Assembly (NCBI GenBank): GCA_902626045.1
Contig: CACODU010000002.1
Coordinates: 1-55,051, forward strand
Length of the DNA stretch: 55,051 nt
From: an uncultured Pelagibacteraceae bacterium
GTDB taxonomy: Bacteria; Pseudomonadota; Alphaproteobacteria; Pelagibacterales; Pelagibacteraceae
Direction of reading: 5' to 3'
Position 1 is the stretch's first letter, and every line of letters begins with the position of its first letter. The position numbers and the translations under genes were made by a program. Under the pieces are notes generated by a model. The model made no database searches. It was not told the DNA's origin and saw nothing but the letters and a program-made list of their open reading frames with translations. This document shows, one piece after another, positions 32,693-38,724 of this stretch.

Positions 32693-33526
32693 GAGAGTTG
32701 TATCAAACGATTGCGCACTGTGTGTGATAGCTCCAACAGAAATTCTATTAACACCTGTTTTAGATATTTGTTTGATATTTTTTAAAGTAGCATTTCCTGA
32801 AAACTCTGTTTGATATTTATTTTTACAAAGTTTTAAACATCTTTTTAATTGAGAAGAGCTCATATTATCAAAAAGTATTCTTTTAAATTTTAAACCCATA
32901 ACCTGCTTTAGTTGATTGATGTTTTCTATTTCGACAGTAATAATTTTTTTTGTTTTTATCGCTTTTTTAACTAAGTCTCTTAGATTATTAGATGCTCTAA
33001 TATGATTTTCCTTAATAAGAATTTCATCACTTAAATTGTATCTATGATTATGTCCACCGCCTTTTTTGACAGCATATTTTTCAAGTGCTCTCAAATTAGG
33101 TGTAGTTTTTCTTGTGCAACAAATCTTAGTTTTTTTACTAATTTTTTTTACAAATTGATTAGTAATTGTTGCGATACCTGAGGCATGATTTAAAAAATTT
33201 AAAGCAGTTCTTTCAGCTGTTAAGATTGTTTTTGCCTTAGCTTTTATTTCAGCAATCAACTTATTCTTTTTAATTTCTTTTCCATCTAAAACTTTCTTTG
33301 AAAAAATAGCTTCTCTACCAACAGACTTAAAAGCTGTTTTACAAAAATCTAACCCCGCGATTATTCCATCCTGTTTAGCTATTATTTTAGCTTTAATAAT
33401 TTTATTTTTTGAATTAATCAGGCTAGTGGTAACATCGCCTCGAGGTCTTAAGTCTTCCTCTAAGGCCTTTTTCACTACTGATTTAATATAAACTTGGTTT
33501 AATTTTTGCACTGATCTAACGACCAA
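32681..33526 (-). CDS. nadC: Nicotinate-nucleotide pyrophosphorylase (carboxylating)
   Basis: RTALNFLNHASGIAT, CTRKTTPNLRALEKYAVKKGGGHNHRYNLSD. Confidence 0.94.
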   Translation of the reverse strand: MVVRSVQKLNQVYIKSVVKKALEEDLRPRGDVTTSLINSKNKIIKAKIIAKQDGIIAGLDFCKTAFKSVGREAIFSKKVLDGKEIKKNKLIAEIKAKAKTILTAERTALNFLNHASGIATITNQFVKKISKKTKICCTRKTTPNLRALEKYAVKKGGGHNHRYNLSDEILIKENHIRASNNLRDLVKKAIKTKKIITVEIENINQLKQVMGLKFKRILFDNMSSSQLKRCLKLCKNKYQTEFSGNATLKNIKQISKTGVNRISVGAITHSAQSFDTTLLFR

Positions 33527-34505
33527 TTTCGGTCATTCTTTGCACAGATTGTCTCGCTGCTTTAGCCATTCTTTCTTCGATGAAAATTTCATTCTTTTCA
33601 TTTTCTAAACAATCAAGAATTTTTTTTAGTGTAATTTTTTTCATATAAGGACAAAGATTGCAGGGCTTAATAAATTCAACATTAGGGTTATCTGCTTGCA
33701 CGTTGTCGCTCATTGAACATTCAGTCACTAACATCACTTTTTTTGGTTGATTTTTTTTTACATAATCGATCATACCACCAGTTGACCCAGCAAAATCACA
33801 CGCATCTAAAACATCACTAGGGCATTCGGGATGACCGATAACTTTAATTCCAGGATTTGCTTCTCTAATGTCTTTAATTTCTTTTGGTGAAAACTGTTCG
33901 TGCACAATACAAGAACCTTTCCAAGAAATTATTTTAACTTTAGTTTGTTTAGCCACATAATTTGCTAAATGTTGGTCAGGTAAGAATATTACTTTATCAG
34001 TTTTTAATGACTCTACTACTTTAACCGCGTTAGCAGAAGTACAACATACATCAGTTTCAGCTTTCACATCAGCTGAAGTGTTCACATAAGATACGACTGG
34101 AACACCTGGATATTGTTTTTTTAATAATCTTACATCTTCACCAGTCAATGAGGCTGCTAGTGAACACCCTGCATCCATATCAGGAATCAGAACTTTTTTA
34201 TCTGGACTCATTAATTTTGCTGTTTCAGCCATAAAATGAACTCCGCAAAGAACTATTATGTCAGCAGAAGTTTTTGCAGCTTCAACTGCGAGAGCTAATG
34301 AGTCAGCTGCGATGTCAGAAACTCCATGGTATATTTCTGGTGTTTGATAATTATGAGCAAGAATTACAGCGTTTTTTTCTTTTTTTAATTTATTAATTTT
34401 TTCTATTAGAGGCGCATGCACTTTCCACTCTATTTCAGGCACGTGTTTTGAGATCTTTTTATAAATCTCAGAAGAGCTTCTAATAAACTGTTCTTGTGCA
34501 GACAT
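33516..34505 (-). CDS. nadA: Quinolinate synthase
   Basis: AVILAHNYQTPEI, CGVHFMAETAKLMSPDKKVLIPD, GHPECPSDV. Confidence 0.96.
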   Translation of the reverse strand: MSAQEQFIRSSSEIYKKISKHVPEIEWKVHAPLIEKINKLKKEKNAVILAHNYQTPEIYHGVSDIAADSLALAVEAAKTSADIIVLCGVHFMAETAKLMSPDKKVLIPDMDAGCSLAASLTGEDVRLLKKQYPGVPVVSYVNTSADVKAETDVCCTSANAVKVVESLKTDKVIFLPDQHLANYVAKQTKVKIISWKGSCIVHEQFSPKEIKDIREANPGIKVIGHPECPSDVLDACDFAGSTGGMIDYVKKNQPKKVMLVTECSMSDNVQADNPNVEFIKPCNLCPYMKKITLKKILDCLENEKNEIFIEERMAKAARQSVQRMTEIGR

Positions 34506-34569: not shown

Positions 34570-34653
34570 GCGGTCGTGCTGAAATTGGTAGACAGGCACG
34601 CTTGAGGGGCGTGTGGGTTTCCCGTGAGAGTTCGAGTCTCTCCGACCGCACCA
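34570..34653 (+). tRNA. tRNA-Leu (anticodon GAG), CCA encoded
   Basis: Acceptor GCGGTCG/CGACCGC, anticodon arm CACGC-TTGAGGG-GCGTG, extended variable arm, T-arm GAGAG-TTCGAGT-CTCTC, CCA. Confidence 0.95.
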
Positions 34654-34657
34654 AAAA
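34628..34657 (+). repeat. att-like direct repeat, left copy (inside the tRNA-Leu 3' end)
   Basis: GAGTTCGAGTCTCTCCGACCGCACCAAAAA, identical 30 nt to 37700-37729. Confidence 0.95.
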
Positions 34658-34753
34658 CGAAGAGAAAACTTAAATAAATTTTAAAAAAAACGCGTCTTTT
34701 TTAGATTCACTGTGCTGGAATTGTGATCGATACTGTGTTCAGATATGTAGTCG

Positions 34754-35437
34754 ATGACGCTTTTAATTACAATCATACCTTCTATAGCAATATTATTATA
34801 TTTTGTTTTTTCTGATAAATTTAAAGAACCTAAAAAGATTATAATAATAACTTTTTTATTTGGAATATTAATTACAATCCCAGCAGGATATTTAAATCAT
34901 TATATAATTGAAGTTTTTTCAAATAAAAATAAAGTTAATAACGCTCTACTCGGAGGTTTCTTCGCTGGAGGATTAGTTGAAGAAACTTTAAAATTTTTAG
35001 TTTTATATTTATATGTTCTTAAAGAAAAAGCGTTTAATGAACCTATGGATGCTATTGTGTACGGGGTTGTCGTGTCTTTAGGATTTGCAACTTTAGAAAA
35101 TTATGACTACGTTTTCCGATTAGCTGAGCAGTACAAAATGCAACCAATGGATATGGCATTAACAAGAGCCTTTACAGCTGTACCAATGCACGCTCTTTGT
35201 GGAGTGATAATGGGTTTCTATTTTGGAATGTACGCATTTGTATCTGGAGGTAAAAATTTAAGTTTAGCTCTAATCGTGCCTTATATATTTCATGGAACTT
35301 ATAACTTTTTATGTTATTTTCCTCCGTATTATATTTTTGTAGTGTTTATACTTTTAGTATTTAGTTATCTCTTACACAAAAATGTTAAGGAAACACAAAA
35401 AATGAAAGGAAGAGAACATGAAGAAAAAATTATTTAA
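34754..35437 (+). CDS. PrsW family intramembrane metalloprotease-like protein
   Basis: EExxK (GGLVEETLKFLVLY), LGFATLENYDYV, MHALCGVIMGFYFG and PYIFHGTYNF motifs; multiple TMs. Confidence 0.85.
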   Translation: MTLLITIIPSIAILLYFVFSDKFKEPKKIIIITFLFGILITIPAGYLNHYIIEVFSNKNKVNNALLGGFFAGGLVEETLKFLVLYLYVLKEKAFNEPMDAIVYGVVVSLGFATLENYDYVFRLAEQYKMQPMDMALTRAFTAVPMHALCGVIMGFYFGMYAFVSGGKNLSLALIVPYIFHGTYNFLCYFPPYYIFVVFILLVFSYLLHKNVKETQKMKGREHEEKII

Positions 35438-36437
35438 CGTTTTAATTTTCTACTTTATCTTAAATTTCTTTAATTTAGTAAATGCTGAACATGAAAAATA
35501 TTACCTTCAGGAATTGCCTGGTAATGAAAATTTAATTTATAATGAATTAATAAAAAAATATAATAAATGGAATGATGAAAGCGAAGGCGATTATTCATGT
35601 ACAAATATAGCTGTCACTATTACCTATCTTGTCGACTTTGCTGACTGTCAATATAGAAAAACTTCAAAATACATGAAAAGGAATGGATTGAATGTTAGCC
35701 AAGAATTTCTAGATGCAGAATATGACTTTTATAAAGATATGAGAGCAAAGGCTTTGTTAGTCGCAAAAAGAATGAATAATTATGGAAGCAAAAATTCAAA
35801 GATCGATATAAAAAACTGGTTAGATAATTATACTGAAGAATTTATTAAAAAGAAATTCTATCAAAGAGATGTTTGGAAAGAATATGCAATTAAAGAGCAA
35901 AAATATGTCACTAAAATTACTGAAGATAAGTTAAACGAAATTGTTAAGAAAAAAGAGGCTGAAAATAATTATAAAGATTATTGGTGGATAGTAGTCTTGC
36001 TTGCTTTAGGAACATTTCTACTCTACACCATGACTGTAAAAAAACCTAAAATCAATTTAATCAAAAAAAAGAAATCTAAACTGAAAGGACGTATAGCAAA
36101 ATATTGGGCAGGTGAGGAATCACTAGCTTTTAGTTTTTGGGGAGTAAGCACAATAGGAGTGATAGTTTTTCAGATTCCTAATTATATTCTTATAAGTATG
36201 GGGGATGCGTATATTGATAATTTATCTGACATTTCTTTATTAATTTATGCTCTTTACATAATTTCCCTAATTATTTATCTCGTAATTGCATATGTGGGCT
36301 GTTGGAGAAGCGCAACGAGATATATTAAGGAAAATTTAAAGAAAAAAAAATCTGCCTTTTGGGGATATACTTCTTATTTTCTTATAGTTTTGTCGGTAAT
36401 AAGAATGTTTGGTCAATTTTTAAGTGAAATTGTTTAG
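35418..36437 (+). CDS. Uncharacterised secreted/4-TM membrane protein
   Basis: Signal peptide, periplasmic domain with paired Cys, one TM, then cytosolic Lys-rich linker and three C-terminal hydrophobic segments; overlaps both neighbours. Confidence 0.75.
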   Translation: MKKKLFNVLIFYFILNFFNLVNAEHEKYYLQELPGNENLIYNELIKKYNKWNDESEGDYSCTNIAVTITYLVDFADCQYRKTSKYMKRNGLNVSQEFLDAEYDFYKDMRAKALLVAKRMNNYGSKNSKIDIKNWLDNYTEEFIKKKFYQRDVWKEYAIKEQKYVTKITEDKLNEIVKKKEAENNYKDYWWIVVLLALGTFLLYTMTVKKPKINLIKKKKSKLKGRIAKYWAGEESLAFSFWGVSTIGVIVFQIPNYILISMGDAYIDNLSDISLLIYALYIISLIIYLVIAYVGCWRSATRYIKENLKKKKSAFWGYTSYFLIVLSVIRMFGQFLSEIV

Positions 36438-37621
36438 TGAGTAAGTTTTTAATAATTTTTATTACAAGTCTCTTTTTGAATTCAACTGCCCTAGCTATAA
36501 ATACTTATAAATATCCTGATAAAGATTTGGATGAAAATCTATGTTCTAATATTATTGAAAAACTTAATAGTCCGACATTTCCTTATTCAAAAAACAAACC
36601 AATTACAGTAGAGGTAGATTTAGAAATTGAAGATATACATGAAATTAGTGGTAAAAATTTAGATTTTGAAACTTCTTATGCAATGTGGCTTCACTGGAAA
36701 GACGACAGTCTTATTAAAGTTTTAAAAGAATTAGGAGTTTTTACGAATAAGGGAAAACCTTTATATCTTTGTGATTATACCCCAAAAACAATTATTGGAG
36801 AAAATAGAAAAATATTTGACCCTGTTGTTGAATTTTTTAATATAAAAGAAAAACCTAATTTCGAGTCTGGATTGCAGGATTGGATTGAGATTTTTAGTGA
36901 TGGCACTGTGCAGTCAAGAATAAGAGATACCAAAATTTTTAAAGGATATTTTAATTTTAAAAATTTTCCATTTGATAAGCAAGATCTGTCTTTTGAAATT
37001 TGGTCAGAGTTTCCGAGTTCTATGGTTAGAATTATAGCAGAGGAGCCAGTTATGTCAGAATATAAAGAGAATCTTTATTCTTTTAGTGTAGAAAATGAAG
37101 GTATCTCAATTCCTGGCTGGGATCTTGTAGGTATGAACTATGAAAATTATACAGTAAGTGAAAATGATGGTTTTGAATATTCTGGTTTGGTAGTTAATCT
37201 AGAAGTTGAAAGGCAATCAGCATATTATTTATTTAAGATAATACTTCCAATTATTTTTATACTTGCAATTTCTTGGTCCGTTTTTTGGGTAAGAGGATCT
37301 CAATTAGAAGCAAAAGTAAATATTACTATTGTTTGTCTCTTATCACTTATTGCGTACAACTTTATTATTGATGAAGATTTACCTAAATTATCTTATTTAA
37401 CTTTTTTAGATTCTTTCATTTTATTGTCTTATTTCTATACAGGTATAGCCACTATATTATGTGTCTATTCATTCGTTAAAAAAATGACGTCAGGTGCAGA
37501 TATTAGTTTTGTTGATTTAAAAGCAAGGTGGATCGGTCCTTTGAGTTATTTTGGAATTTTAATTTTAACGCTAATTTATTTTTATAATTTGGAAGGAACT
37601 CTCGCATTATTTCGTCTCTGA
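36437..37621 (+). CDS. Prokaryotic pentameric ligand-gated ion channel (Cys-loop receptor family)
   Basis: GTG start; signal peptide; Cys-loop-equivalent motif FPFDKQDLSFEIWS; pre-M1 RQSAYYLFKIILPIIFILAISWSVFWV; M2 LEAKVNITIVCLLSLIAYNFIIDEDLPKLSYLTFLDSFI; four C-terminal TMs. Confidence 0.88.
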   Translation: MSKFLIIFITSLFLNSTALAINTYKYPDKDLDENLCSNIIEKLNSPTFPYSKNKPITVEVDLEIEDIHEISGKNLDFETSYAMWLHWKDDSLIKVLKELGVFTNKGKPLYLCDYTPKTIIGENRKIFDPVVEFFNIKEKPNFESGLQDWIEIFSDGTVQSRIRDTKIFKGYFNFKNFPFDKQDLSFEIWSEFPSSMVRIIAEEPVMSEYKENLYSFSVENEGISIPGWDLVGMNYENYTVSENDGFEYSGLVVNLEVERQSAYYLFKIILPIIFILAISWSVFWVRGSQLEAKVNITIVCLLSLIAYNFIIDEDLPKLSYLTFLDSFILLSYFYTGIATILCVYSFVKKMTSGADISFVDLKARWIGPLSYFGILILTLIYFYNLEGTLALFRL

Positions 37622-37699
37622 CTGTATTGATATTGTGCTCATTACAGTCTACTCTTGGAAAAAGTGTTGTGGTTAGTGGGGAACGGGTAATGCACCAAG

Positions 37700-37729
37700 G
37701 AGTTCGAGTCTCTCCGACCGCACCAAAAA
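37700..37729 (+). repeat. att-like direct repeat, right copy (orphan tRNA-Leu 3' end)
   Basis: GAGTTCGAGTCTCTCCGACCGCACCAAAAA, identical to 34628-34657; no tRNA 5' half upstream. Confidence 0.95.
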
Positions 37730-37737
37730 GCTTATTT

Positions 37738-37857
37738 ATGATTGAATATTTAAAAAAAAATAAACGAATAGTTCTTATAATTTTAGTTATAGCTTTTATT
37801 GAATTGAGTGGTTATGGGATCTTAGCCTCTCTTTCAAGATTATTAAACGCTCTTTAA
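37738..37857 (+). CDS. 39-aa single-TM small protein
   Basis: MIEYLKKNKRIVLIILVIAFIELSGYGILASLSRLLNAL; chosen over the longer ORF 37627-37857 because that one reads through the tRNA remnant. Confidence 0.5.
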   Translation: MIEYLKKNKRIVLIILVIAFIELSGYGILASLSRLLNAL

Positions 37858-38724
37858 AATTTTGCATTTTTTGGTGTTTGCTAGAAGCTCTGTATTTTCA
37901 AATTCTTTAATATTAGGATCAACAACTTTTATTAAACCAAATGGATATGGTTTATCTATAAGTATCTTGCCAACTTTAACTTTATTGTAAAATATTTCTT
38001 CCCCCATGTTTAATTTTTCTTTTGAATACATCGGCAACAACCTTCTTCTTAATTTATCTTTTAATTTCATTCTTGCAGTGTTTTCTTGGCCAATATAGCA
38101 TCCCTTTTTGAAATCTATTGCATTAAGTTCCTCAAAATTAGCTTCTAAACCAAATAATTGATCTTTTAAATTTTCAATACCTTTTATTGGAATACCTAAA
38201 GAATGGGCTTTTGCAAAATATGTTTCAGGTTTAACAATTTTCAAGCCTAATTTTTTTATAGTAAGATGTAATTTTTCTAATTTTGACAATATTCTCCCTC
38301 CTAAATTTTTATTTCGAGGATCTAGAAAAAGAGGACTATCCCTAAACTCTATCGTATCGTCAGTTTTATTTTCAATTTCTTGAATATCTAAAAATTTTTC
38401 TGAACTTATTAATCCAATCACATAATCTGTGGATATATCTCTTATTTCAATCTTTGATCTTAATTTGTATTTCAATAAGTAATTTATTATTTCTTTTGTA
38501 AATTTATTATCACAATCTAAAAGATAACCATTCTTTGATTGTATTAAAAAAAATTCAAATAAATATTTTCCTTGGGGCGTAAAAAGAGCTGAAAAAATTG
38601 AGGACGAAAAACTTACTTTTTCAATATCATTTGTAATGATGTTTTGAAGAAAATTTTTGTTATCTTCACCTGTTATTGAGATTAATCCACGATCTTCTAA
38701 TAAAATAATTTGATCTTTTTCCAT
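37843..38724 (-). CDS. ygfZ: YgfZ/GcvT family folate-binding protein
   Basis: KGCYIGQENTARM signature (KGCYxGQE). Confidence 0.9.
   Translation of the reverse strand: MEKDQIILLEDRGLISITGEDNKNFLQNIITNDIEKVSFSSSIFSALFTPQGKYLFEFFLIQSKNGYLLDCDNKFTKEIINYLLKYKLRSKIEIRDISTDYVIGLISSEKFLDIQEIENKTDDTIEFRDSPLFLDPRNKNLGGRILSKLEKLHLTIKKLGLKIVKPETYFAKAHSLGIPIKGIENLKDQLFGLEANFEELNAIDFKKGCYIGQENTARMKLKDKLRRRLLPMYSKEKLNMGEEIFYNKVKVGKILIDKPYPFGLIKVVDPNIKEFENTELLANTKKCKILKSV

What the first reader, a model, noticed from the sequence alone, without database searches (positions are those of the whole stretch)
34628..37729. tRNA-Leu(GAG)-integrated islet bounded by perfect 30-bp att-like repeats
The last 26 nt of tRNA-Leu(GAG) plus 4 following A's (GAGTTCGAGTCTCTCCGACCGCACCAAAAA) recur exactly 3072 bp downstream as an orphan copy with no tRNA 5' half. 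This is the footprint of tyrosine-recombinase integration into a tRNA 3' end. The enclosed DNA holds three co-oriented, overlapping genes and no integrase, so it may be a satellite or fossil islet whose recombinase is supplied in trans. The flanks (nadA, ygfZ) are core genes.
Basis: partly seen in the sequence, partly recalled or inferred. Interest (0 to 1): 0.9.

Follow-up and report, generated by a model that had tools for sequence, protein, structure and literature searches.

The report
Integrase-less mobile gene cassettes in SAR11
In ocean SAR11 bacteria, small gene packages with the same end sequences but different contents sit in the end of one tRNA gene, and they carry no gene for the enzyme that would insert them, so they appear to be moved by an enzyme supplied from elsewhere.

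Summary
Comparison with 168 genomes of the same genus turns one islet into an element family. Of 117 genomes with the tRNA locus, 67 have an empty site. Five have a second core copy, each with an ~82-bp right arm (partial in G127) beside it; seven have a ~95-bp left arm right after the tRNA. Cargo between the arms is mostly unrelated: PrsW–ORF2–pLGIC here, a Hhe/Mokosh-like helicase, a MORN-repeat set, a DEAD-box helicase. Both arms contain the same 28-bp repeat, as expected of recombinase arm sites. No integrase was found within 10 kb of any site. PrsW cargo moved between lineages (dS 0.32 against 1.96 for flanking nadA). Best reading: non-autonomous tRNA-Leu cassettes integrated by tyrosine-type recombination in trans. 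The arms were not found in 2.9 million viral contigs or in sampled other genera. tRNA-targeted cassettes in streamlined plankton are known; a SAR11 family with defined arms and no recombinase looks like a new variant. The helper and current activity are unproven.

The parts
34570..34653 (+). tRNA-Leu(GAG), the integration target; after insertion its 3' end is the element-borne copy
   Evidence: ARAGORN
34628..34657 (+). left copy of the core repeat (attL core): last 26 nt of the tRNA plus AAAA
34655..34750 (+). left arm of the element, 85-91% identical to the arms of G127, G164, G078, G084, G068, G014
34709..34736 (+). 28-bp repeat, left copy (candidate arm-type recombinase site)
34754..35437 (+). 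cargo ORF1: PrsW-family intramembrane protease, with EExxK motif (EETLK) in the sequence
   Evidence: Pfam PF13367, E 9.5e-36
35418..36437 (+). cargo ORF2: membrane protein of no known family; N-terminal half variable, C-terminal half conserved between elements
36437..37621 (+). cargo ORF3: pentameric ligand-gated ion channel homologue (ELIC/GLIC-like)
   Evidence: Pfam Neur_chan_LBD 3.6e-12; PDB chains of ELIC at 1e-23
37618..37699 (+). right arm of the element, 96-100% identical in G078, G164 and G077; outer part also in G127. The stop codon of ORF3 lies in its first bases
37621..37648 (+). 28-bp repeat, right copy
37700..37729 (+). right copy of the core repeat (attR core), the displaced tRNA 3' end
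37738..37857 (+). small conserved ORF (MIEYLKKN...), native neighbour of the tRNA in empty sites
37843..38724 (-). ygfZ homologue, native right flank
33516..34505 (-). nadA, native left flank

Best explanation
The islet is one member of a family of small (about 1.6-5.1 kb) non-autonomous integrative elements of one SAR11 genus. Each element is two conserved DNA arms around interchangeable cargo. The circular form would join right arm, tRNA core and left arm into an attP. A tyrosine recombinase acting in trans would bind the 28-bp arm repeats and the core and exchange strands in the T-loop of tRNA-Leu(GAG); this rebuilds the tRNA with the element's own 3' end and leaves the displaced 3' end at the far side. 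Shown: exact core repeat, empty sites, conserved arms on both sides, cargo exchange, no integrase found nearby, lateral transfer of one cargo gene. Inferred: circular form, enzyme class, crossover point, action in trans, present activity. The cargo here (PrsW, a membrane protein with a variable outer half, a pLGIC-type channel) may be a membrane sensing or defence module; that is inference only.
For: Exact 30-bp repeat. 67 empty sites of 117. Left arm in seven of 169 genomes, always directly after tRNA-Leu(GAG); right arm in five, always next to a second core copy. Mostly unrelated cargo between near-identical arms. Same 28-bp repeat in both arms: 22/28 matches, no shuffle of 300 above 20. No integrase in ORFs within up to 10 kb of 118 core sites. 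PrsW of G000 and G127: 92.5% DNA identity against 77% for the flank, dS 0.32 against 1.96 for nadA, dN 0.026.
Against: No helper recombinase was identified and the arms are absent from the viral contigs searched. Genomes are partial; the G127 element has a contig gap in which an integrase could hide. No excised circle has been seen. Several carriers have only one arm, so many copies are decayed.
Confidence: 0.74

Rival explanations
1. The islets are fossils: larger phages or islands with their own integrase entered tRNA-Leu(GAG), and each later lost the integrase and other genes, leaving attL, attR and a few genes (CIME-like remnants).
For: Decay is visible: left arm without right arm in G068, G084, G014, and shortened left arms in five genomes. 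No integrase near the sites.
Against: None of 117 loci holds an integrase-bearing intermediate, while integrases do sit beside other tRNA genes of the genus. The arms stay 96-100% identical around unrelated cargo, and PrsW moved recently between two hosts.
Confidence: 0.18
2. Cargo is swapped by homologous recombination between the conserved arms or flanks; the arms are conserved because they are the homology used, and no site-specific enzyme is needed now.
For: Arms of 80-95 bp bracket the cargo; ORF2 relatives differ in the N-terminal half only, which suggests recombination inside cargo too.
Against: It does not explain entry into empty sites with an exact tRNA 3'-end repeat, nor the 28-bp repeat in both arms. 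Flanks between carriers are only 77-82% identical.
Confidence: 0.06
3. Assembly artefact or chance repeat.
For: The assembly is incomplete and fragmented (712 kb in 44 contigs).
Against: Same arms and core in four other assemblies with other cargo; no chance match in shuffles.
Confidence: 0.01

Closest known systems
tRNA-targeted gene cassettes in fGI1 of 'Ca. Actinomarinales' (PMC7771536) and fGI-2 of 'Ca. Methylopumilus' (PMC10872708)
   Same: Streamlined plankton; [quoted passage not shown] variable cargo.
   Different: The passages read there describe no conserved arms beyond the tRNA repeat; other phyla, other tRNAs. Here the cargo sits between defined ~82- and ~95-bp arms with a shared 28-bp repeat.
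Tycheposons (Hackl 2023, as described in PMC10872708)
   Same: Marine, tRNA-bordered, cargo-carrying.
   Different: Described as 4-200 kb with a tyrosine recombinase; here 1.6-5.1 kb and none found.
CIMEs, cis-mobilizable elements (PMC5704250)
   Same: Keep attL and attR, without integration or transfer genes.
   Different: CIMEs are decayed ICEs or IMEs that move by accretion with an intact neighbour; no such neighbour or ICE gene was seen here, and the short form itself appears to spread.
Phage satellites (PICI, PICMI and others; PMC11389934)
   Same: Small, integrated, dependent on a helper in the proposed reading.
   Different: No integrase, replication, packaging or confident phage-family gene; no helper phage known.
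Integrase-bearing islands of the same SAR11 genus at other tRNA genes (Leu-TAG, Glu and others)
   Same: Same hosts, tRNA 3' ends as targets.
   Different: They carry 348-472-aa integrases; no strong arm similarity to the present family.

Membership tests
Site-specific integrative element in a tRNA 3' end | direct repeat of the tRNA 3' end at both boundaries | tested here: met
Site-specific integrative element in a tRNA 3' end | empty site in relatives with the exact joined sequence | tested here: met
   67 of 117 loci empty; G020 junction identical to the right junction of the islet
Site-specific integrative element in a tRNA 3' end | conserved arm sequences with repeats flanking the core | tested here: met
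   arms, 28-bp repeat; binding by an enzyme not testable here
Site-specific integrative element in a tRNA 3' end | own integrase | tested here: not met
   none in the islet nor in ORFs within up to 10 kb of 118 core sites
Tycheposon | tRNA at the border | tested here: met
Tycheposon | tyrosine recombinase inside | tested here: not met
Tycheposon | size 4-200 kb | tested here: not met
   spacings 1.56, 2.34, 3.07 and 5.15 kb
CIME | attL and attR kept, integration and transfer genes absent | tested here: met
CIME | derived from an ICE or IME and mobilised in cis by one | not testable with these tools
   no ancestor or neighbouring ICE seen
Phage satellite | integrase, replication or packaging genes and a helper phage | tested here: not met
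   no PHROG match to the cargo better than E 0.005, none informative; no helper found

The most novel reading that the evidence does not exclude
A living family of minimal mobile elements whose whole mobility module is two short DNA arms, moved by a host or transient recombinase in trans, shuttling membrane and anti-phage-type cargo (PrsW–ORF2–ion channel, Hhe/Mokosh-like helicase) among SAR11 lineages at one tRNA gene.
Probability: 0.4. Interest if true: 0.8.

Novelty: new variant of a known kind. Interest (0 to 1): 0.64.

Why it matters
SAR11 bacteria are among the most abundant cells in the sea, yet how their streamlined genomes gain genes is poorly understood. A compact, cargo-swapping element family with sequence-defined ends gives an exact search string for counting gene-gain events in ocean data, and it makes the question 'which recombinase moves integrase-less cassettes?' directly testable.

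Tried and rejected
Helper phage: the 25-nt core in viral contigs hit five phages, each with a complete tRNA-Leu(TAG) in a tRNA array, so not an attP. Arms in viral contigs: none. Phage records: only short hits covering about 14-16% of the query, many of them tRNA genes. An autonomous relative at the same tRNA: none in the genus; the longer integrases whose surroundings were read sit beside tRNA-Leu(TAG), Leu(CAA), Glu, Pro, Val or Met where a tRNA was found. Arm motif in other genera of the order: none in the sampled genomes at up to 2 mismatches. PrsW and pLGIC relatives in viral contigs: none. My first impression that only this genome has two core copies (61 genomes) was overturned by the full genus search. 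Inverted pairing of the arms: no better than shuffles (15 of 28). Not run: structure prediction of ORF2.

Full report
OBSERVATION. tRNA-Leu(GAG) lies at 34570-34653. Its last 26 nt recur at 37700-37725 without mismatch and nowhere else in the window at up to 3 mismatches; shuffles gave none. With the following AAAA the repeat is 30 nt. Three co-oriented overlapping genes lie between. The core has only these two copies in the held 712-kb genome.

EMPTY SITES. The core pattern was sought in 169 genomes of the genus, and 117 have it. In 66 of these the small ORF MIEYLKKN... starts at most 20 bp after the tRNA, and in one more (G030) ygfZ follows at once, giving 67 empty sites. The nearest relative with the locus, G020, reads CACCAAAAGCTTATTTATG, as does the right junction of the islet. 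The insert is therefore a gain in this lineage.

AN ELEMENT FAMILY. An ~80-bp block after the tRNA in G000 was also present in G014. A pattern search found it in seven of 169 genomes, always right after tRNA-Leu(GAG). A search of named genomes returned Pelagibacteraceae (SAR11) assemblies with single-cell-style names, including one more carrier, AG-919-C22. The block before the orphan core (right arm, about 82 bp) recurs in G078, G164 and G077 at 96-100% identity. Its outer part recurs in G127. All five genomes with a right arm have a second core copy. Core-to-core spacings are 1.56 (G077), 2.34 (G078), 3.07 (G000) and 5.15 kb (G164); the G127 element spans two contigs.

THE ARMS LOOK LIKE AN attP. 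Joined end to end, right arm, core and left arm would form a recombination site with the tRNA core in the middle. Both arms hold the same 28-bp direct repeat (ACTGTGYTGRWATTGTGCTCRTYACWGT). The reference arms match at 22 of 28 positions; of 300 dinucleotide-preserving shuffles one reached 20 and none 22. Identity between element and tRNA begins in the 5' strand of the T-stem. That is expected if strand exchange lies in the T-loop (general knowledge of tyrosine integrases at tRNA genes; not tested here).

CARGO. G000: PrsW protease, ORF2 of no known family, and a pLGIC homologue similar to ELIC and GLIC. G164: a 1,527-residue superfamily 1 helicase-like protein with partial similarity to the anti-phage proteins Hhe, Mokosh and ProA; the NCBIfam matches to Hhe and ProA are far below their cut-offs. 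G078: four small genes, one with a MORN repeat. G127: the ATPase inhibitor zeta subunit, a PrsW 95% identical to that of G000, and an ORF2 relative; zeta was not found in the held parts of G000, G020, G164 or G078. AG-919-C22: left arm, PrsW and an ORF2 relative with another N-terminal half. G077 and G068: a DEAD-box helicase by its sequence. PADLOC gave no match to the PrsW, ORF2 or pLGIC proteins.

LATERAL MOVEMENT. Between G000 and G127 the nadC-nadA-tRNA flank is 77% identical at the DNA level, but PrsW is 92.5%. For PrsW dS is 0.32 and dN 0.026; for nadA dS is 1.96, near saturation. The cargo gene copies in these two hosts therefore split much later than the hosts themselves, and the gene is under purifying selection.

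NO RECOMBINASE. No integrase ORF was found within up to 10 kb downstream of 118 core sites (profile built from ten integrases of the genus). The genomes with both arms each have one PF00589 protein elsewhere (251-325 aa; 309-327 aa is the common size in the genus). Longer integrases occur in a few genomes, beside other tRNA genes. The arms were not found in 2.9 million viral contigs by exact pattern, nor in sampled genomes of other genera of the order at up to 2 mismatches. Limits: genomes are partial, downstream sequence is shorter than 10 kb at many contig ends, and the G127 element has a gap.

DECAY AND FIXATION. G068, G084 and G014 have a left arm but no right arm. G069, G077, G079, G123 and G158 have a shortened left arm before the DEAD-box helicase, and G123 has a degenerate core at +1492. 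Together with intact elements and empty sites this looks like a series from insertion to domestication (inference).

MECHANISM. Best reading: a non-autonomous tRNA-Leu(GAG) cassette family integrated by a tyrosine recombinase in trans. The enzyme may be the common host recombinase or a transient helper; the evidence does not choose. Cargo function here is inferred only: an intramembrane protease, a membrane protein with a variable outer half (compare), and a channel suggest a membrane sensing or defence module. Overlapping PrsW–pLGIC pairs without ORF2 recur elsewhere in the genus, so the cargo was probably captured from a chromosomal module.

COMPARISON WITH WHAT IS KNOWN. [quoted passage not shown] Actinomarinales' (PMC7771536) and 'Ca. 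Methylopumilus' (PMC10872708). Tycheposons carry a tyrosine recombinase and are larger (PMC10872708). CIMEs keep att sites after losing integration and transfer genes (PMC5704250). SAR11 hypervariable regions were described in 2007; the passages read there mention tRNA genes beside HVR4 and an integrase in HVR2, but no such element (PMC2217521). The paper searches made here found no SAR11 element family of this kind, but the library lacks most subscription journals, including the tycheposon paper itself, so novelty is provisional.

Noticed in passing
L085-L088, L091, L092 (other genomes of the genus): PrsW and a pLGIC homologue form an overlapping gene pair at non-tRNA loci in at least six genomes, without ORF2 between them, often preceded by a ~150-aa gene. 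A protease-channel operon of unknown role.
   Followed up: partly
L212 (G127, contig C5) and L091 (G157): Two membrane genes before the right arm of the G127 element look similar by eye to two genes beside the PrsW–pLGIC pair of G157, as if one neighbourhood had been captured.
   Followed up: no
L043 (G007) and L213 (G128): The tRNA-Leu(GAG) gene ends GCACAC or GCACAT with no encoded CCA, followed by similar sequence in both genomes: a different kind of insert at the same tRNA.
   Followed up: no
L035, L052, L185, L197, L202, L208, L214, L219, L228, L249, L256: In this group the tRNA is followed by sequence resembling the start of the left arm (AGAAACCTAAATAAAT); in the two loci read in full (L035, L052) a dehydrogenase and a formate-tetrahydrofolate-ligase-like gene come next, perhaps an old fixed insert.
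   Followed up: partly
L262, L264, L266, L271 (tRNA-Leu TAG); L263 (tRNA-Glu): Integrase-bearing islands sit beside other tRNA genes of the genus; the tRNA-Glu one has a 27-bp duplicated tRNA end.
   Followed up: partly
L049 (G014), L043 (G007), L044 (G028), L081 (G078): Variable glycan-type genes lie near tRNA-Leu(GAG) or between the small ORF and ygfZ, so the wider region is a variation hotspot beyond the cassettes.
   Followed up: no
L083:1871-2182 (G127): An ATPase inhibitor zeta subunit gene lies inside an element; it was not found in the held parts of four other genomes of the genus.
   Followed up: partly
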